Assembly: GCA_963922205.1 (NCBI GenBank)
Contig: CAWUHX010000219.1
Coordinates: 1-64,000, forward strand
From: Romanomermis culicivorax
Taxonomy: Eukaryota; Nematoda; Enoplea; Mermithida; Mermithidae
Direction: 5' to 3'
Length of the DNA: 64,000 nt
The notes below the pieces were generated by a model. It did no database searches. It saw only the letters and a program-made list of their open reading frames with translations, and was not told where the DNA came from. Made by a program: the position numbers and the translations under genes. Shown here in pieces: positions 20,513 to 52,223 of this stretch. The stretch's first letter is position 1. Each line of letters starts with the position of its first letter.

Positions 20513-20984
20513 AAAAGCACGTTGAAAATGATGTGCTTAAAAGTCAATGTATTGCTGCTATGCTTTTTCCATATGAGTTGCACGTACACTTTTTTCGTCT
20601 AACGGCTAAATTGAAAATTTCAAGCTTGCCTAGCAGTGAATGTAGCTACCTGTCACAATTTCAATAGGCAAAACAACTGAACTTCACGTCTCTTCAAACT
20701 TGCTATATTAATTTGATGGAGAAAAATCAGATTCATTAGTTGATTGAACGATTGACTGCCATTGAGCGAGCGGGCGAGCAGACGAAATGAATTATTTTAT
20801 TATTGGTGTTCTAGTTTACTGTTATTTTGCGATCAGTTTTTCGTTTGATGGATTGAATTCAGAGGTGAGCGAGCGACTGTAGAAAAATTTCATGCTTTTG
20901 CTATAGTGGCACGTTCAGCTGTTGATCACGAAGCCTGCCCTGCTGACACCACCAATTTCTGAACTATCCATGTGGCTCAGTTAG

Positions 20985-21062
20985 GCACTGGGTAGCACGT
21001 CTGCCTTGTAGGCAGAAGGTCGAGGGTTCGAACCACTCACCAGATGTTACTTTTCTGATGCC
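20985..21062 (+). repeat. tRNA-like segment (Thr-TGT-like anticodon loop)
   Basis: TGGCTCAGTTAGG (box A), a good anticodon stem CTGCCTTGTAGGCAG and GAGGGTTCGAACC (box B) followed by TTACTTTTC. The D-loop is enlarged and the acceptor ends do not pair, so a functional tRNA is unlikely. It may be another tRNA-bearing LTR or a SINE head; no ends or TSD could be fixed. Confidence 0.5.
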
Positions 21063-21149
21063 CCGATCACAAGGATTTGGACCTAGTGTAAGATTGTTCC
21101 AGGCTCTAATTAGTGGAAGAATCTGATCGAAAATAATTGGGCAATACAT

Positions 21150-26286: not shown

Positions 26287-26446
26287 AACCAGAATGGCGC
26301 TCTCTTTTTTGCAACAATTCATAGTTGAAGTAGTTGCTGTGAGCACTCTCAACATCCCTCCACCCTCGAATTTGAGGGACCATCAAGGGCCACCATCAGT
26401 GTTGAGACAACCTGTTCCCACTACTCGGAGCTTCAGTAAAAGTTAG

Positions 26447-26519
26447 GCTCAGTCTGGGACTTGAACTCGGGACCTTGCGGCTACCGTCCACATGCTATAA
26501 CCAACTGAGCCAACCGAGC
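26447..26519 (-). repeat. tRNA-like Pol III cassette in TRIM-B 5' LTR
   Basis: 73 bases. Acceptor halves GCTCGGT and ACTGAGC pair 7/7 with one wobble. Box A TGGCTCAGTTGG and box B GAGTTCAAGTCC fit consensus. A five-pair anticodon stem is possible, but the loop lacks the usual T33. TTTT follows at 26441-26438. Differences from the 3' LTR copy mostly preserve pairing. Confidence 0.75.
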
Positions 26520-28203: not shown

Positions 28204-30857
28204 GAATACGATTCTAATACTATCGAACACTATCAAAATATGGTTCGCTCAAAAAGAGTTGTCAGTAATGAAACTGAATTGGCACACTCTAAACCATGGA
28301 TGGTCTTTCTGGATACTGCAGAAGGGCTTTGTGGCGGATTTCTCATGGATCCTCACTTGTATGTGTCGTCAACCTTGCAGCCCCCCGAAAACACATCCGA
28401 CATTGTTGTAACTGCTGCACATTGTGTCACAAAAAGGTAAAGACTCTTCATTATGTATGCTTCTCATGAGTATCATCCCCTAGGGCAATTTTTGGTGTTG
28501 GTATGGTTGCACGAGTGAAGTTTCCTCCATACATTATGATTTGTGAAGTGCCTGCTACTATGAATTCAACTGTAAAAATATGGAGCTGACTTTAGAAGTC
28601 TGAGCCAGTATCAGTGCATCTCGTAGCCACCCATCTTGTTACGTGTGAATGCAAAAGGTACCTACAGAAATATGGGAATATGTGTGGGGTGCATAAATGG
28701 TATAATGTGCTTGCTAAACAATAGCCTAAGCCTAAGCCTAAGCCTAAGCCTGAGCCTAAGCCTGAGCCTAAGCCAAAGCCTAAGCCTAAGCCTGAGCCTA
28801 AGCCTAAGCCTAAGCCTAAGCCTAAGCCTAAGCCTAAGCCTAAGCCTAAGCCTAAGCCTAAGCCTAAGCCTAAGAATAAGCCTAAGCCTAAGCCTAAGCC
28901 TAAGCCTAAGCCTAAGCCTAAGCCTAAGCCTAAGCCAAAGCCTAAGCCTAAGCCCAAGCCCAAGCCCAAGCCCAAGTAAGCCTATGCAAAAGCTCAAGTC
29001 TCAGTCTGAATCAAAGTTTTTTTTCAAGCTATATTGAATTTTGGTATTTTAATTAGATAAGACCAGACATTGCTAGAGTTCAATATTTATATACAACTGC
29101 AAATATTCATTTGAGGTGTTTGAGGTGATAGGTCATGAGCCTATGATATTTTTATTTTAGCTCTTAACCATTGTTTGATATAATATGACACTTTGTAACA
29201 AGACAGCCTTTGATCATGGATGATGTCAACCTAGGGCATCCTCAATGTAACAGAGATATGCCTGAATCCCTGTGGCATAAGTTCATTAGTAACCAGAGTT
29301 GAGGTACTGTTGATGTCCAGAAGTTATATTGAACTTTGGATGATCCTTTGACTGTACCACATGGCATTTCCACAACATTTTGAATAGCAATTGCATCACT
29401 GTTTTAAATTGTGATACAAATTGCAACTTATTGCTCTCTGACTAATGCCGCCAAGGAGTTGATGTGAATGAAACGAATAAAATCGTAGATTTTATACCTG
29501 AGATAGGTCAGTGTTTTATCGAATTAATAGCGTGATTGCCCTTTTTGTCATTCTGCCTTATAACTCTCTAACCATCAATGCTTGATTCTTTGCTTCAGGT
29601 TCTCTTAATGACCATAAATTGTCGACAATATCAGACATTTTTTCCAGAAAATAATGAAGTGACATCAGCAGAAGATGTTTTATAGGGGCTTATTCCTATC
29701 TTTCAAAAGATGGTTTTCGATAAGCACATGGTGGGGCTCAATTATTGTAGCCATCTACGAAAAAAATTAATCTATATCTGTATCATCCGTGAAACGAGCT
29801 TCTTATAATTTTTGTAGTGTTGTAATTATAATATACTTATTTCAGGAACCACAGCATCGCCTGGGCAATAGATCCATCTTTGATTATTGCACGTTTTGGT
29901 GTGCACAATCCATATATTGAGGAGAACTGGGTTGAAAGCATAACAGCAAAATACATCTCCGTTCATGATAGCTACAACCCTGGCATATTCAGTCACGATA
30001 TTGCAATTATACGATTAAGCAAAGCTGTAAAATTTAGTAAACTTGTTCAACCATTAAATATTACTTCACTCAATGTTACCAACGTATCTAATTGCTCAAT
30101 TTCTGGTTGGGGTGCTGACCCAAAGAAGCCAGGTAATTATGCATAGGAAATGTAGGAAAAAGTATACTTTCTCAGTTTTTAGATGGCGTTGATGGTAATG
30201 GTGTATTGGCGACAGTTAATTTGTTGGACAGCCCACGTTTTGTTTCAATGGAGTGGGCATCTGTTTTTGTGCATCTTAAGGATGGTGCAACCACTATAGG
30301 GGTAGGATGAACTTGATTATCATAATATTGACAATGTCTGATATCATACAAAATGAATGAATCCAATGTAGGAACCAGATATCAATGTTGCTGTCTCATG
30401 TACTAAATCCAGGAATCGAAAAGGTGATTTCATGATGATTTTTTTACCATCTCAAATTTTGTAAAGCGAAACCTGTGATTGATGGCTTTTTTTGATAACT
30501 CATTATTAAATCAGCACTTTTTTTCTAGTATTGCATATGTTTTCCAAATCAAGACACAAAAAAATAAAGTGGCTCTTCTTGTGTTCCATGGATTGCTGTA
30601 CTTTTTTTGTAAATGCAAAATTATTTGAATAGTTGTTTACTTTTCAGAGAGGCAACACTTCAGCCTGTCAAAATACTTTTGTATATCTTGTTATATCATA
30701 TCCATTGTCAATTTATACTCGATTTCTATATTTCCAGTTGAGGTAGACAATTTTTCATTATGTTTTTTAATTTTGAGGGCGATTCAGGAAGTCCAGTGGT
30801 CTGCAAAAAAGATGGCAAGGTGTTTGCGCAGGGTATTCACAGTGGATCCAATGGCGA
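28204..30857 (+). CDS. Copy B exons 1-5: complete catalytic trypsin-like domain
   Basis: Exon 28204-28435 carries the zymogen cleavage site (RSKR before VVSNE), LCGGF and the His57 motif VVTAAHC. Exon 29846-30132 carries Asp102 in SHDIAIIRL and SGWGAD. Exon 30778-30857 carries Ser195 in GDSGSPVVC. Basic residues before VV suggest activation by a trypsin- or furin-like enzyme. N-glycosylation sequons NITS, NVTN and NCSI occur near the Asp exon end, in keeping with secretion. Intron 1 holds the telomere-type array 28725-28976. Confidence 0.8.
28725..28976 (-). repeat. Interstitial nematode-type telomeric array (TTAGGC)n
   Basis: About 42 tandem hexamers, GCCTAA on the plus strand, equal to TTAGGC on the minus strand, the telomere repeat known from Caenorhabditis and Ascaris. 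Variants (CCTGAG, CCAAAG, one AATAAG, a run of CCCAAG at the right end) sit mostly near the edges; the core about 28793-28872 is perfect. It lies in the intron between the His and Asp exons. Long Ser-Leu, Gly-Leu and Arg-Leu frames across it are repeat artefacts. Confidence 0.9.
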
Positions 30858-38136: not shown

Positions 38137-38711
38137 TGTTGTGGGGCGCCGATCGACTACAGTAAGCTCATCAGCTTTTCAAAATGATTCGCAAGGATGC
38201 ATCGTTTCCAAGCTCAAAGTTGTTCGAAGTTGTCCAAAGGTTTACAACATCAAAGATTACACTCGCAGCAAGTTTGTGATAAACTCAGTTGTTGTTTCAT
38301 TTGTCTTAGTGAGCAGTCCGTTTTGTGAGAGACTCTGAGCATCGCTAGTAAATCGAAAACCCAGTGTGTGTTCTAGGTTGAGTCAAACTATTTGGAAAAT
38401 AGTTTGAGTAAGCAGGTGAAACTCCTAGAGGTTAAGATAGCACTGCCCGAGTTTTCGGCATCCAAAAACTGTTGACGAGCTGAGCGAAGATCCCTGGATA
38501 AATTGACACAGCGCTCTCTAGGAGCCCATCAATCTCCTGCGTACAATTATCGTTGCGTTGAATTCGTCTTACACTCTGAGTGTTCTGTTTCTAGTGTTCC
38601 GCATGCTCTTCTACGTTCAGTACATCTCTTCTTAAAAGCGCACAATAAATAGTCAAGCTACACAGCTTAAAAGCATCTACTCATCGTCTATTCTTATTTT
38701 CATGCACGACA
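38137..38711 (+). repeat. 5' LTR (575 bp)
   Basis: Starts TGTTGTGGGGCGCC, ends TGCACGACA; equal in length to the 3' LTR, and the bulk of differences are transitions. Confidence 0.9.
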
Positions 38712-38714
38712 TTT

Positions 38715-38732
38715 TGGTGACCATACAAGCTC
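38715..38732 (+). promoter_or_regulatory. Primer-binding site candidate
   Basis: TGGTGACCATAC lies three bases after the 5' LTR; TGG would pair with the CCA end of a tRNA. The tRNA was not identified. Confidence 0.6.
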
Positions 38733-38741
38733 TTTTAAAGG

Positions 38742-41531
38742 TTGAGGAAACGCCAAAATTTGCGAAAAATCGAAAATCCAAAAAATGGAGGAAAACCGCA
38801 TGCGTGGCTCTACTGCGGTAGCTTAGAAAAAGGTTTCTACAAGAAACTAGCGAATCCCGATGATCAAGAAATCGAAAATTTCGACTGCGAAAACGCAAAT
38901 CTAACACTTTTCTACGAAGCAGATAAGCCTAGTTTTGATTTACCAGAAACGTCCACTCCGCTAAAAACGCGAAAAACTTCACAATCTCTATCCCCGAAAA
39001 TCGTCGAACATCAAAAATTGAACTTTCTAAAACCGAAACGGAAGGAGATCGATGCTCAAAAAATCTAGGATAATGACGCATATATCGACCTAATGCAAAA
39101 ATGTGATGCTGAAATGATAAATTTTCGTGGCCACGCTACTAACACGTTAAGCAAAATGGTTACGATAGCGACTCAGCATCGAAAAATTCTTGAAGACTAC
39201 AAAGCCGAAATCAAAGGGATGAGAGCTCAGGAAGAAGAGCTATCGAAACCGAACATTCCTGAAATCAAAAATATCGCAAGACCTACGAGCTCTTATGCTC
39301 AGTCTCTAAAATTGAATAAACCGAAAAATGCCATCAGCAATCAAAAAAGTCAACTTAGTTTTTGAGGTATAATCGATGATGATGATGATCTAATCATCCC
39401 GACACAAATGTTTGACAGCTCTAACCCGCTAAATGTGCTAAACTCTCAGATAAATTTTCCGTCTATCCCACCTTCTCAGGTGCATAGATCTTTCCCTGAT
39501 GATCAAACGAGAGTAAAGACTATCTGTAAAAAGATAGCCCCGCAAAAACTAGATAATTCAACCCCAAATCAACAAGTGTTGAAATTCTTCTTTGTGATGC
39601 TCGAAAACGAGTTTGGCCTTGATGCCTCTGAACATGTGAAACTTCACATGTTGCCTCGCTTGACTTGCGATGGTGCCCTGAACACCATACGAGATGTTCG
39701 ATCCTATGATGAAGCGAAACAGATTTTATTGTGTATGAATGCACCAAATTGCGACCACGATACGCTCCAATGCGAGCTCCAATCCATCGTTCCTTTTGAA
39801 ACTGAAGATCCCTCAGCTTTTTTGAATCGAATCAGTACCTACATACATCTACTGTACTATGACAGAATCGCTCAGTATCGCCATAAAAAAGTTATCACAA
39901 CTTTTCTTTGGAAAATGCTGGAAATATACAGAGTCTCGATTGACATTTGTACTCTAGAAACGATTACTGACTTAGCTATAGCCGTCACGAAAGTTCAGAA
40001 AATCCAGCGAGCGAATAGACAGACAACTGTGAGAGTAGAACAACCTATACTGGTTAATAAATTCAAAAATCTGTCCGAAGAGCAACTAGCTCAATCACGT
40101 TTCAGAGGTGATTCAAAACCTCGTTTCAGAGATAACTCTCAATCCCAAAATAGAGATGACTCTAGACAGCGAAATAGCGTGAGGTTTCAAGAAAATTTGA
40201 CTCTAATGAAGACGAAAGAATTGGTAGAAAGCATAAAACGAGTCCTAGAAAAGTTCGGAATCTGAGAAAATATGTGACACATTAATAATTTCGAAAATCA
40301 AAGATCCCGATTCAAACGAGGGATGAGTCCGAATTTCCGGAATAGAGAAAACATTCCTATACGGGATTTCTCTCAAAATCGAAACTTCCAACGAAATCAG
40401 TCTCCTGAACTACCTGGGAAATATTGCACCTATCATGGTCAGTGTAAACACGACAGCTCTGAATGCTATCAATTGAAACTACAGGCTCCTGAGCCTCGGC
40501 AACAGCAACCGAATCATCAATGGCAAAACCATAATTGGCGTCCTTGTTTCCAACAAAATAAGCATAACTGCACGCTCAATCAGAATTAAAATTTTGACGG
40601 AAACAACCGATTTTTCAATCGCCATAATTGAAACTATCAGAGAGATGTTGCAAACATTTCTCTCTGCGATTCCGAATCCCGACAAGAAAAGATAATGGAA
40701 AAGCATTACTACTATCTGATGAACAATTCACAGTCTGTACAGACTCAGCTAACTTCTCCAAAATCTTCGCAACAAGTTTAGTCATCAGAAACCAAAACGT
40801 TGTTTAACTCACCTAAACCTTTTGTTCGGATGAAGCCGACAACTAGTACAGCTAATATGCTTGAACCCACAGATAGGTCTAACGCTACAAATTTTTTCGT
40901 GGCTCCTGGAATCACAGATTTCACCATTCAAAAACCCACTGAACCATGGATCGCGAGATCTAGCGTGTGTCGAATCCAAGAATGTTCACAAAAAGACATC
41001 AAACTTCTGAGCTTATACACTCCTACTCGAGCTTTTCATATTGATGCTGAATTCGGAAAAACTAAAACGAAAGCGTTGATCGATACCGGTGCTCAATGTT
41101 CAGTCATTTCCTCATGTCTAGCTCAACGATCTTTGGGGATTGACAATGATATGTTAGAATCATCTGCGTAGATAAAAGTAGCCAATGGTGCTATCATGGA
41201 TGCCCGAGGTCCGATAATCTTCAAAATCAATTCATCTTTCAGAATGCATCTAGTATGATGCTGGATTCTACCTACGGCAGGAGAGCAATGCCTCTTAGGA
41301 ACTAATTTGAGCATTCGAGCAGTAATAAACTTCCGCGAAAATTTCATCAGAATTGGGGACGTTCAGCAAGAAATAAATCCCGTTTTGAAACGGATCGAAA
41401 AAGCACCCTATGATGAAGTATTTTCAAATACTTCTATGGGACAAAGTCAAACGCAAATCCTGAAAATCTCAGAAAGTCTCGCTTTCGTGAATAAAACCAT
41501 ATATGCCTCGAACGGCATTCAAATTTTTTAA
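38742..41531 (+). pseudogene. Gag-protease polyprotein remnant of the LTR retrotransposon
   Basis: One frame stays open for about 930 codons except for stops at 39066 (TAG), 39363 and 40263 (TGA), 40272 (TGA), 40587 (TAA), about 40629 (TGA), about 40779 (TAG), 41169 (TAG), about 41256 (TGA) and 41529 (TAA). A long capsid-like region covers 39408-40265. A Cys/His nucleocapsid motif CTYHGQCKHDSSEC lies at about 40425. The aspartic protease signature ALIDTGAQCSVISS lies at about 41075. There are no frameshifts. All stops are reachable from CAA, CAG, CGA or TGG by one transition. Confidence 0.8.
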
Positions 41532-42040
41532 GGCGCAAGTCAGTGGTCCTCCACAACTAACTAGTCATGCGCTACTGCATTGAGAGTGAATTTTGTATCA
41601 TTTGTAAAATATTTATTTTCTACTTCAAAATCGATTCGTTTTTTATATATTCCGTTTTCCATTTCATCTTCACCATTTTGATCATTTTGAACTAACCTAT
41701 AACAGTCTTTCACAGACTAAAGGTAGCATATGGTTGATTTGCGAGCTGCGATAAAAACTTCGTTTGGAAACATGCTTTTGCATTATCTACTGGGTGGCAA
41801 AGAAACCAGGACATCATAAACATTTCAAATTTTTCTACGTCTCATCTGTATCCCCGAAATTTCTTCTACAGTTTGGTATTGATCCCCTCAATACCTTTCG
41901 AATTTCGAGTTTCAAAGACTTCGCCAGAAGCTTTATATACATTTCTCTACGAAACTTAAAGCTTGCATCCACAGCAAACTTTCCGATCTAACGCCTCCGT
42001 GGCTAAAGATTCTATTCTAAAACACTGACACCTCCGCGGC

Positions 42041-42117
42041 TAAAGACTCCGGTCATCAGAATAAAGACTCCGGTCATCAGAATAAAGACTCCGGTCATCA
42101 AAATAAAGACTCTGGTC
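42041..42117 (+). repeat. 21-bp tandem repeat, about 3.6 units
   Basis: Unit AATAAAGACTCCGGTCATCA with one more base, inside the deleted pol region just upstream of the 3' LTR. Confidence 0.85.
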
Positions 42118-42327
42118 CTTCCGCTCGAAATCCAGCCTTGGTGATACGTTCTGTAGAAAAAATTTTGTTCCATATCCAAAAAAGTGCCACCATTGTTTCA
42201 AAGTATCTGATCGCTGCGGAAGTCGAATGAAATAGTCCGCCAAAGAAAGAAAGATCCTCTGCATCTGAAGAAAAAAACGCTCCTTCCCGAAGAGAGAAAA
42301 TTCGAATCGCTTGAGGTGATTTGCATC

Positions 42328-42340
42328 AAATGGGGAGGAG
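42328..42340 (+). promoter_or_regulatory. Polypurine tract
   Basis: AAATGGGGAGGAG abuts the TG of the 3' LTR, as expected for the plus-strand primer. Confidence 0.8.
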
Positions 42341-42915
42341 TGTTGTGGGGCGCCGATTGACTACAGTAAGCCCATCAGCTTTTCAAAGTGATTCGCAAGA
42401 ATGCATCGTTTCCAAGCTCAAAGTTGTTCTAAGTTGTCCAAAGGTTTACAACATCAAAGATTACACTCGCAGCAAGTTTGTGATAAAGTCAGTTGTTGTT
42501 TCCTTTGTCTTAGTGAGCAGTCAGTTTTGTGAGAGGCTCTGAGCATCGCTAGTAAATTGAAAACCCAGTGTGTGTTCTAGGTTGAGTCAAACTATTTGGA
42601 CAATAGTTTGAGTAAGCAGGTGAAACTCCTAGAGGTTAAGATAGCACAGCCCGAGTTTTCAGCATCCGAAAACCGTTGACGACCTGAGCGAAGATCCCTG
42701 GATTAATTGACACAGTGCTCTCTACGAGCCGATCAATCTCCTGCATATGATTATCGTTGCGTTGAATTCGTCTAACACTAAGAGTGTTCCATTTCTAGCT
42801 TTCTGCACGCTCTTCTACGTTCGGTACGTCTCTTCTTAAAAGCATGTGATAAATCTTCAAGCTACACAGCTTAAAAGTGTCTACTCGTGGTCTATTCTTA
42901 TTTTCACGCACGACA
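42341..42915 (+). repeat. 3' LTR (575 bp)
   Basis: Starts TGTTGTGGGGCGCC, ends CACGCACGACA; followed by the CATG target duplication. Confidence 0.9.
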
Positions 42916-44041: not shown

Positions 44042-44503
44042 TGTGACGATTCGCAAAAGGTGCCATCGTGCATTTTCCTCTGAACCTGTAGACTTGATGT
44101 TGCTCATCCAGGTAACACGCCCAGACCTGAATTTTTGTGAGGGGCACTTCTGCAGTCGCAACAGGCCATGCAGGGCTGTGCAGTTGGTGGTAGAGAAGCT
44201 ACCACACAGTGTGCGAGAACCGTTATATACATGGTGACTGTACCAGGGGGCCCCTTGCCTGCCTCAGCAGGGGTAGGGATGTTGTGAGGAGGGCGTCACA
44301 CTTCCCTAGGAGGAGAATGTGACGATGGGCAAAAGGTGTCATCGTGCATTTTCCTCTGAACCCCTAGACTTGATGTTGCTCACCCAAGTCATGGGTCCAG
44401 ACCTGGATTTTTGTGACGGGCACTGCTGCGGTCGCAACAGGCGATGGAGGGATGTGCAGTCGGTGGTAGACAAACTACCATCCAGTGTGCGAGAACTGTT
44501 ACA
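44042..44503 (+). mobile_element. Miniature LTR element TRIM-C, without tRNA cassette
   Basis: LTRs 44042-44231 and 44318-44503 (TGTGACGAT...TTACA) enclose 86 bases that start with TGGTGACTGTACC (primer-binding candidate) and end with AGGAGGAGAA (polypurine tract). Flanks CATA and CATG differ by one base, probably a mutated 4-bp duplication. A third LTR copy stands alone at 46198-46383. No box A/B pair was found on either strand of its LTR. Confidence 0.8.
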
Positions 44504-44722
44504 CATGTCCAGCTTATTCATCAGATTTGGCACCCAGCCACCGCCACCTGTTTTCAGAATGAGGAGAAGCACCTGTGTGGAAGTAATTTTGAAACCATAC
44601 ATGCATTGAAAGAGGCTGTGAATGAGTGGATTAGCGTAAGCCCCAAAGAGTTCTTGGACTCAAGCCTTAAGCTTCAAGAACAGTGATCAAAATGTACAGA
44701 AAGAGCGGGTGATTATGATTAG

Positions 44723-46197: not shown

Positions 46198-46383
46198 TGT
46201 GATGATGTGCAAAAGGTGAAGTCGTGCATTTTCCGCTGAAGCCGTAGACTTGATGTTGCTCATCCAAGTCAGGAGCCCAGACCTGGATTTTTGTGACGGG
46301 CACTGCTGCAGTCGCAACAGGCGATGCAGGGCTGTGCAGTCGGTGGTAGAGAAGCTACCACCCAGTGTGCAAGAACCGTTACA
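46198..46383 (+). mobile_element. Solo LTR of the TRIM-C family, TSD CACC
   Basis: 186 bases, TGTGATGATGTGC...CCGTTACA, about 85% identical to the TRIM-C LTRs; CACC at 46194-46197 and 46384-46387. A solo LTR of so short an element shows that LTR-LTR recombination acts on this size class. Confidence 0.85.
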
Positions 46384-46985
46384 CACCCACCAACCATCCC
46401 CTCGATAAATAGTCCGACGACCTTCTACCCCTGAAAAGTTCTTGCCATGCATGTCTGTGTTAAGACTAATGGTAGACTGTGAAGCTTCCAAGTAATCTTT
46501 CTTCTGACACCTGCTGCATATTCTTGACGAACTTTGTGTAATACTGAGCATTGATCCACCAGAATACAATGAACATAACTGTTCTGATTGATGATGCCTT
46601 AACTAGAGCCCTATCATCCTTTTGTCGCCACTTCATGGATGAAGTCTTAACCCTGGCATATAGTAGAGTAACATTATCTCATCAATGCACTGCATCTATG
46701 CCCAACAACAACTTGCACGAATCGAGCATGTTCTTCGATTCTGCTCCCAGTCCAGGCATTCACCATGTGAAAACCAGGCTGAAATAAAAGTTCTCATGTA
46801 ATGTTTTGTGAGGGCTATGTTGTGCCTTTCTTTTTTTATGTTGTGACTTTCTTTTTTAAGGTGTAACATCCATAATGAATTCAGGCATGAAATAATTTAT
46901 CAACTAGCAACAATCATCTTAACAGTGTTATTGCTCCTCGAAGGAGGCAGTATTATGATATTAATTGTGTGTGAAAGTCTGAGCA

Positions 46986-51406: not shown

Positions 51407-51525
51407 AGTTGTTGATTCTTAATAAACTTATGTTTGATTTATTTTTTTTACCTATGAATTAAGTTTATTCCATGTGTCACGTGTCGCACGGCCGTATATC
51501 ACCCCTTCGTAGCAATCGCAACACT

Positions 51526-51596
51526 GGCTCGATAGTTCAATCGGAAGAATGCTGCACTATAGTCACAGAGACCTGGGTTCGAATCCTGGTCGAGCA
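51526..51596 (+). repeat. tRNA-like Pol III cassette in TRIM-A 5' LTR
   Basis: Acceptor halves GCTCGAT and GTCGAGC pair 7/7 with one wobble. Box A TAGTTCAATCGG (51533-51544) and box B GGTTCGAATCC (51576-51586) match consensus. The loop CTATAGT would give anticodon ATA, and the anticodon stem has two mismatches, so it is unlikely to be a working tRNA. TTTTT at 51600-51604 would stop Pol III right after it. Confidence 0.8.
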
Positions 51597-51799
51597 TTAT
51601 TTTTCGAACAGTAATAGGCGATGGTTAGGAGGGCAAGGCGTTTACCCATTACATGTCATGGCCAGGCTTGGATTGGTCCCACAATGGTGGGCTGCAGAAC
51701 CTGCATCTTCAAAGGACGAGGTCGTCCTTCTTTCAAGGGGGGGGGGAATGTCACCTGTCGCAGGGCCGTACATCACCCCTTCGTAGCAATCGCAACACA

Positions 51800-51870
51800 G
51801 GCTTGGTAGTTCAATCGGAAGAACGCTGCACTATAGTCACAGAGACCCGAGTTCCAATCCCGGTGGAGCA
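51800..51870 (+). repeat. tRNA-like Pol III cassette in TRIM-A 3' LTR
   Basis: Same unit as in the 5' LTR with substitutions; box A unchanged, box B now GAGTTCCAATCC with one off-consensus base; a TTTTT run follows. Confidence 0.75.
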
Positions 51871-52223
51871 TTATTTTTCGAACAGTGTTTGGCGATGGTT
51901 ACGGTGGCAACGCGTTTACCAATTACGTGTCACATGTTTTCAAAAATGGGTAGTTTTCTAGGGATTTTCAAAAGTTTTTGGGGTTTTATGGGTTGCTTTA
52001 ACGATTGAGGTATTTTTAGGTTTTTTGGGGTAAAATTGGGGTTTTTGAAGGCAACTACTTGGCAACACTGACTACACATTATGAAAAAGCTATGATTGAC
52101 AGTTATTGCATGAATGTCAATTATTAAGAAAGATGAAAGTTTTCTTCCTGCTGCCCAAAAAGACGCGTTCCAGATGCCACCTGGATGCATCCAGTTTGAG
52201 GGTTAGTTTCGCCCGGTAGTGTA

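What the first reader, a model, noticed from the sequence alone, without database searches (positions are those of the whole stretch)
51475..51932. TRIM-A: complete miniature LTR element whose LTRs contain a tRNA-like Pol III gene
Seen: equal 184-bp LTRs, TGG start of the core, ten-G polypurine tract, perfect CATG duplication, and in each LTR box A, box B, a fully pairing acceptor stem and a T5 terminator in the sense direction. Known: plant Cassandra TRIMs carry 5S rRNA promoters in their LTRs. Inference: this is an analogous animal design with a tRNA-derived promoter, possibly Pol III-transcribed or using the tRNA fold for packaging or priming. I am not aware of a described equivalent, but could not search.
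Basis: partly seen in the sequence, partly recalled or inferred. Interest (0 to 1): 0.9.

Follow-up and report, generated by a model that had tools for sequence, protein, structure and literature searches.

The report
Tiny retrotransposon with tRNA-like LTR promoter
It is a real 458-base mobile element whose end repeats carry a tRNA-like gene, one of many copies in this animal genome; elements of this kind were described in 2024 as "Helenus", so the design is known, but this appears to be a new family of it, probably in a nematode.

Summary
The element is real: two 184-bp LTRs (88.6% identical), a 90-bp core, PBS, G10 polypurine tract and CATG duplication at 51471-51936. Rfam finds a tRNA in the 5' LTR; the 3' unit has decayed below threshold. 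The 359-Mb host genome holds many copies: 39 fetched loci carry 84 LTRs, exact 4-bp TSDs at 28 of 39, and LTR pairs up to 99.5% identical. A search keyed on the tRNA unit alone found it inside this LTR at all 40 places scored (of 706 candidates), so no free SINE was seen. The PBS fits host tRNA-Arg(UCG). A Ty3/Gypsy element with similar LTR termini, PBS start and pre-PPT motif is the likely helper.
The design is known: it meets the main structural features of Helenus TRIMs (Kojima 2024, PMC10886601). That paper does not mention nematodes, the probable host phylum (TTAGGC-type array; not confirmed). A second Helenus-like family with a tRNA-Thr-like unit and a different likely helper lives in the same genome. 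Pol III transcription remains inferred.

The parts
51471..51474 (.). 5' target site duplication CATG
   Evidence: sequence; 4-bp TSDs at related loci
51475..51658 (+). 5' LTR (184 bp, TGTCAC...TGTCA)
51526..51597 (+). tRNA-like unit (ARAGORN Tyr-ATA; RF00005 37.5 bits)
51533..51544 (+). box A TAGTTCAATCGG
   Evidence: sequence; consensus motif recalled; motif exact in 63 of 86 LTRs
51576..51586 (+). box B GGTTCGAATCC
   Evidence: sequence; consensus motif recalled; motif exact in 66 of 86 LTRs
51600..51604 (+). T5 Pol III terminator-like run
   Evidence: run of 5 or more T in 82 of 86 LTRs
51659..51668 (+). primer binding site TGGCCAGGCT; commonest family form TGGCGAGGCT fits host tRNA-Arg(UCG)
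51714..51727 (+). GGACGAGGTCGTCC motif before the PPT, similar in the candidate Gypsy helper
51735..51748 (+). polypurine tract AAG10AA
   Evidence: G-tract before the 3' LTR in the aligned cores
51749..51932 (+). 3' LTR (184 bp)
51800..51871 (+). tRNA-like unit of the 3' LTR, decayed (25.7 bits, below cut-off)
51874..51878 (+). T5 run in the 3' LTR, proposed 3' end of the element RNA
   Evidence: sequence; role inferred
51933..51936 (.). 3' target site duplication CATG
   Evidence: sequence

Best explanation
This is one old copy of a Helenus-type TRIM (TRIMp3): a non-autonomous LTR retrotransposon whose LTRs contain a tRNA-derived unit. Shown: LTR structure, 4-bp TSDs, multicopy family, solo LTRs, a PBS that fits host tRNA-Arg(UCG), a PPT, and a tRNA unit recognisable in most copies examined. 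Inferred: box A and box B in the 5' LTR recruit RNA polymerase III; transcription starts at the tRNA-like unit, reads through the first T5 and stops at the T5 of the 3' LTR, so the unit plus its trailer acts as the repeated R region, as reported for Cassandra. The RNA is packaged by proteins of a Ty3/Gypsy element with similar LTR termini and the same primer tRNA, reverse transcribed from tRNA-Arg, and integrated by that element's integrase.
For: Structure; tRNA model hit; 41 of 44 LTR units in 20 of the 39 fetched loci pass Rfam's cut-off. T-run of 5 or more in 82 of 86 LTRs; exact box A motif in 63, exact box B in 66, all three in 44 of 86, including both LTRs of the young copy L013. Genome family; exact TSD at 28 of 39 loci and 20 of 31 further loci, with four solo LTRs with exact TSDs, L116, L117, L124, L125. 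The unit was inside the LTR at all 40 scored places and in 103 of 103 hits in the DNA held, duplicates included. PBS complementary to tRNA-Arg(UCG) over ten bases; L092 has a TRIM-A LTR followed by a 16-nt match. Candidate Gypsy helper: LTR start TGTCACGTGCCGC against TGTCACGTGTCGC, end GTGACA as in young TRIM copies, 4-bp TSDs, tRNA-Arg PBS, pre-PPT similarity reached by 0 of 2000 shuffles, Ty3 capsid, protease, RT/RNaseH and integrase domains. Published parallel: animal Helenus has 4-bp TSDs and Gypsy-like PBSs; Cassandra RNA starts and ends in the 5S units (passage in PMC10886601).
Against: No transcript data. A T5 in the 5' LTR should stop much Pol III before full-length RNA is made. Two anticodon-stem pairs are mismatched. 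Column divergence in the tRNA unit (0.036) is lower than upstream (0.058) but close to downstream (0.043), and boxes A and B (0.043, 0.041) are no more conserved than the rest, so selection on the promoter is not shown. Only 44 of 86 LTRs keep all three signals exactly. Box A reads TAGTT where the paper reports TRGCY for most Helenus. The primer match is only ten bases (nine in the window's copy), and just 16 tRNA units from a capped list were compared. The helper's LTR body is unrelated to this LTR and its PPT differs.
Confidence: 0.8

Rival explanations
1. Ordinary Pol II-driven TRIM in which the tRNA-like unit is a hitchhiking fossil from an old SINE or tRNA insertion into the LTR.
For: No transcription data; anticodon-stem mismatches; T5 in the 5' LTR; boxes not more conserved than the rest of the LTR; all three signals exact in only 44 of 86 LTRs.
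Against: 41 of 44 units pass the tRNA model; the young copy L013 (99.5% LTR identity) has exact boxes and T-run in both LTRs; a second family in the same genome has the same layout.
Confidence: 0.15
2. A tRNA-derived SINE, or a local tandem duplication of a tRNA-bearing segment, mistaken for an LTR element.
For: Tandem arrays of the element exist (L019, L026, L027, L037).
Against: All 40 places found by the unit alone lie in this LTR, in two loci with the LTR's first 29-40 bases missing; 4-bp TSDs; PBS and PPT; array members share LTRs and cores.
Confidence: 0.01
3. The unit is kept for its RNA product: a tRNA-like small RNA that primes reverse transcription or directs packaging.
For: The unit fits the tRNA model and has a terminator-like T-run.
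Against: The PBS fits host tRNA-Arg(UCG) rather than the 3' end of the element's unit; the paper also finds no such complementarity for other Helenus. Packaging could not be tested.
Confidence: 0.04

Closest known systems
Helenus TRIMs (Kojima 2024, PMC10886601)
   Same: LTRs with a tRNA-like unit, PBS for a tRNA 3' end, PPT, 4-bp TSD as in animal Helenus, Gypsy as likely helper, tandem arrays (reported for one zebrafish family), length within 311-1263 bp
   Different: Host probably a nematode, a phylum not in the paper's distribution table; unit reads Tyr(ATA) by ARAGORN; box A has TAGTT where most Helenus have TRGCY; identity to published Helenus consensuses not tested
Cassandra (plant TRIM)
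   Same: Pol III-type promoter in the LTR; RNA reported to start and end within the promoter unit (passage in PMC10886601)
   Different: Cassandra carries 5S rRNA sequence, is found in plants and has a methionine tRNA PBS (passages in PMC10853983)
ta-TRIM of Echinococcus (PMC4558846, passages)
   Same: Animal TRIM with LTRs of about 198 bp and a candidate helper sharing LTR start and PBS
   Different: The words Pol III and polymerase III do not occur in the paper's main text; leucine tRNA PBS
tRNA-derived SINEs (recalled, and PMC10886601)
   Same: tRNA-derived box A/box B
   Different: SINEs have no LTRs, PBS or PPT and are moved by non-LTR elements

Membership tests
Helenus | Short non-autonomous LTR element (TRIM) | tested here: met
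   458 bp, two 184-bp LTRs; no ORF of 120 aa or more overlaps it
[quoted passage not shown]
   RF00005 in the 5' LTR and 41 of 44 units in 20 related loci; the window's own 3' LTR is below cut-off
Helenus | Box A with TRGCY and YGG, box B with GGTTC (most families) | tested here: inconclusive
   CGG and GGTTC present, but TAGTT in place of TRGCY
Helenus | PBS complementary to a tRNA 3' end and a PPT | tested here: met
   tRNA-Arg(UCG), ten bases; PPT
Helenus | 4-bp TSD in animals | tested here: met
   28 of 39 loci exact, 4 more with 3 of 4
Helenus | PBS similarity to Gypsy elements (animals), taken as sign of mobilisation | tested here: met
   Ty3/Gypsy element with same PBS start, similar LTR termini and pre-PPT motif; mobilisation itself not testable
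Helenus | RNA polymerase III transcription | not testable with these tools
   the paper also leaves it unproven
Helenus | Sequence similarity to a published Helenus family | not tested
   consensus sequences are in supplements, not readable here; the paper says LTRs are not well conserved
Cassandra | 5S rRNA-derived unit in the LTR | tested here: not met
   only tRNA matched in Rfam
SINE | Unit with its own ends, outside an LTR | tested here: not met
   0 of 40 scored places, of 706 candidates

The most novel reading that the evidence does not exclude
One genome holds two tRNA-bearing TRIM families (Tyr-like TRIM-A and Thr-like TRIM-C) with unrelated LTRs, different primer sites and different likely Gypsy helpers, yet in several copies the same acceptor-stem start (GGCTC) and the same end and trailer (GAGCATTATTTTTC). 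This could be a portable Pol III cassette that was captured by, or exchanged between, TRIMs riding different Gypsy lineages.
Probability: 0.25. Interest if true: 0.5.

Novelty: new member of a known kind. Interest (0 to 1): 0.33.

Why it matters
It extends Helenus to a host that is probably a nematode and gives a case where the TRIM, its likely primer tRNA and a helper candidate are all in one genome, so that the unproven claim of Pol III-driven LTR elements in animals can be tested. It also warns that tRNA predictions in this genome include LTR copies.

Tried and rejected
Self-priming: the PBS shares a short word (GGCTTGG) with the acceptor region of the window's 3' LTR unit, which first suggested the element's own tRNA as primer; dropped when the commonest family PBS fitted tRNA-Arg(UCG). 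Not all host tRNAs were compared.

Source of the tRNA unit: identity to 37 other tRNA units of the genome (eight of them TRIM-C) is 0.60-0.72, with no clear parent (16 of the tRNA units first). Shared ancestry of the TRIM-A and TRIM-C cassettes: inconclusive, because a tRNA-Ala gene has a trailer at least as similar and the bodies are no closer than to other tRNAs.

TRIM-A LTR on a larger element: L112 has a TRIM-A LTR lacking its first 29 bases, followed by a tRNA-Arg PBS and, 159 bases on, sequence 89.5% identical to the internal region of L094. The locus also holds inverted L094-like pieces and no recognisable coding domain (three small frames scanned, none over a cut-off), so it is a rearranged locus, not a demonstrated chimera.

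Whole-genome copy counts of unit, LTR and core and the host's spliced-leader test (RF00198) did not complete (search machine busy). Host phylum rests on a TTAGGC-type array at 28723-28984; that this repeat is typical of nematode telomeres is recalled. Pfam on four window ORFs gave nothing over a cut-off.

Full report
What is there. The window holds a complete 458-bp LTR element at 51475-51932, flanked by CATG on both sides. The LTRs are 184 bp each and 88.6% identical without gaps. The core is 90 bp, begins TGG and ends in AAG10AA. Rfam's tRNA model matches the 5' LTR at 51526-51597 with 37.5 bits (cut-off 29); ARAGORN reads it as tRNA-Tyr(ATA). In the 3' LTR the same unit scores 25.7 bits, below the cut-off, because acceptor stem, T stem and box B have decayed. 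Two anticodon-stem pairs are mismatched in both.

It is a family. A search of the host genome (359 Mb, 595 contigs) gave 46 matches, the window's included, over nearly the whole element at 89-92% identity (100% for the window itself). Only 40 of 437 candidates were scored, so this is a lower bound. I fetched the 45 others as 39 loci, holding 84 LTRs; with the window's two, 86 were aligned. These copies were picked for likeness to the window's copy. LTR pairs within loci are 90.1% to 99.5% identical; cores are 86-94 bp. Exact 4-bp TSDs flank 28 of 39 loci and 4 more have 3 of 4; random re-pairing of flanks gives 0.9 on average and 6 at most in 2000 trials. The window's copy, with 88.6% LTR identity, is older than any of these by that measure. 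Arrays that share LTRs occur at four loci (L019, L026, L027, L037).

The tRNA unit belongs to the LTR. A search with only the unit and its T-run (79 bases) scored 40 of 706 candidates. Eight of these places lay in the window or in loci already held; I fetched the other 32 in 31 loci. All 31 show the TRIM-A LTR around the unit; in two of them (L112, L129) the first 29-40 bases are missing, and a few others have a truncated partner LTR. Twenty of 31 have exact 4-bp TSDs, including four solo LTRs, L116, L117, L124 and L125. L113 and L131 share TSD and core length and may be duplicates of one insertion.

The unit itself. In 20 of the 39 loci, 41 of 44 LTR units reach Rfam's cut-off. Of 86 LTRs, 63 keep an exact box A motif, 66 an exact box B motif, 82 a run of at least five T, and 44 all three, among them both LTRs of L013 and the window's 5' LTR but not its 3' LTR (motifs recalled). 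Mean column divergence is 0.036 in the unit, 0.058 upstream, 0.043 downstream, 0.043 in box A and 0.041 in box B, so selection on the promoter is not shown.

Primer and helper. The commonest start of the core is TGGCGAGGCTTG (25 of 46; the window has TGGCCAGGCTTG). Host tRNA-Arg(UCG) genes end in CAGCCTCG, so with CCA added they pair with the first ten bases of that form. Only 16 tRNA units from a capped list were compared, besides the pattern search. A pattern of LTR end plus a longer tRNA-Arg site has 43 places in the genome against 0 for the reversed control. Of the 10 fetched, one carries a TRIM-A LTR (L092), four are TRIM-B-like (L089, L091, L096, L097; L092 has an inverted TRIM-B LTR beside it), and L093 and L090 look autonomous. 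L093 encodes a Ty3-type capsid and, further down, protease, reverse transcriptase/RNase H and integrase domains in separate frames; L090's first frame had no Pfam match, but protease and reverse transcriptase lie downstream. The L093 LTRs (1468 bp) are 100% identical. It resembles the TRIM in LTR start (TGTCACGTGCCGC against TGTCACGTGTCGC), the end GTGACA (in young TRIM copies such as L013), 4-bp TSDs and the motif GGACGAGG before the PPT; the PPT itself differs. The similarity of the last 40 core bases was reached by 0 of 2000 shuffles, against 238 of 2000 for the other Gypsy element in the window and 34 of 2000 for TRIM-B. The LTR bodies are unrelated, as the paper reports for a fungal Helenus and a Copia relative.

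How it most likely works. Shown: LTR anatomy, a tRNA-Arg priming site, integration with 4-bp TSDs. Inferred: Pol III starts at the unit in the 5' LTR, passes the first T5 at some rate, and stops at the T5 in the 3' LTR, so unit and trailer form the R repeat needed for strand transfer. Cassandra RNA is reported to start and end within its 5S units (passage in PMC10886601). The Gypsy helper would supply capsid, RT and integrase.

What is known. Kojima 2024 (PMC10886601; I read the abstract, Methods, Results, Discussion, legends and tables, and passages of the rest) described Helenus, TRIMs with tRNA-like units in their LTRs, in fungi, animals and one plant; animal families have 4-bp TSDs and Gypsy-like PBSs. 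The tested structural features are met, except that box A has TAGTT where most Helenus have TRGCY. The paper's main text holds no word beginning 'nematod'. Searches for Helenus, TRIMp3, nematode TRIMs and tRNA-derived non-autonomous LTR elements listed no report of Helenus in nematodes (seen as listings, apart from PMC10886601 and passages of PMC12859917). One listed paper on a root-knot nematode uses the word TRIM and was not opened (PMC8685519). The host is probably a nematode because of a TTAGGC-type array; this was not confirmed. The finding is thus a new member of a known kind.

A second family. The genome also has a Thr-like family, here called TRIM-C, found through the tRNA search: LTRs of about 204 bp starting TGTTGTAG and ending in ACGACA or close variants, core about 49 bp, PBS TTGGTGACCATACC, five tRNA units in tandem at L104. 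Its termini and PBS resemble the Gypsy element in this window (38137-42915). Whether its cassette and TRIM-A's share a recent origin is open.

Noticed in passing
window 38137-42915: LTR element with 575-bp LTRs, CATG TSD, PBS TTTTGGTGACCATAC and a weak aspartyl protease match below Pfam's cut-off; likely helper type for TRIM-C.
   Followed up: partly
L103-L107, L109, L071, L074 and window about 20895-21090: Second tRNA-bearing TRIM family (Thr-like unit), tandem array of five units at L104, apparent solo LTR in L074 with TACT TSD, degraded LTR piece in the window (77% over 135 bases).
   Followed up: partly
window 44042-44231, 44318-44509 and 46198-46385: TRIM-B: a TRIM pair plus a solo LTR without a recognised tRNA unit; related copies elsewhere carry a tRNA-Arg PBS while the window copy has a TGGTGAC site, suggesting primer switching.
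   Followed up: partly
L093, L098, L101 (G000:C51 about 839400-852600): Gypsy-type element with identical LTRs in which a viral fusion glycoprotein domain (PF24664) lies upstream of the protease and RT domains, an order that looks unusual. Described only.
   Followed up: no
window 28723-28984: Interstitial TTAGGC-type array of about 44 units.
   Followed up: no
L112 and L142 (G000:C80 about 391800-394600): Truncated TRIM-A LTR next to a tRNA-Arg PBS and the internal region of a larger L094-like element, in a rearranged locus.
   Followed up: partly
window 26446-26519, minus strand: tRNA-Thr(GGT)-like gene or pseudogene by ARAGORN, not listed by Rfam at its cut-off.
   Followed up: no
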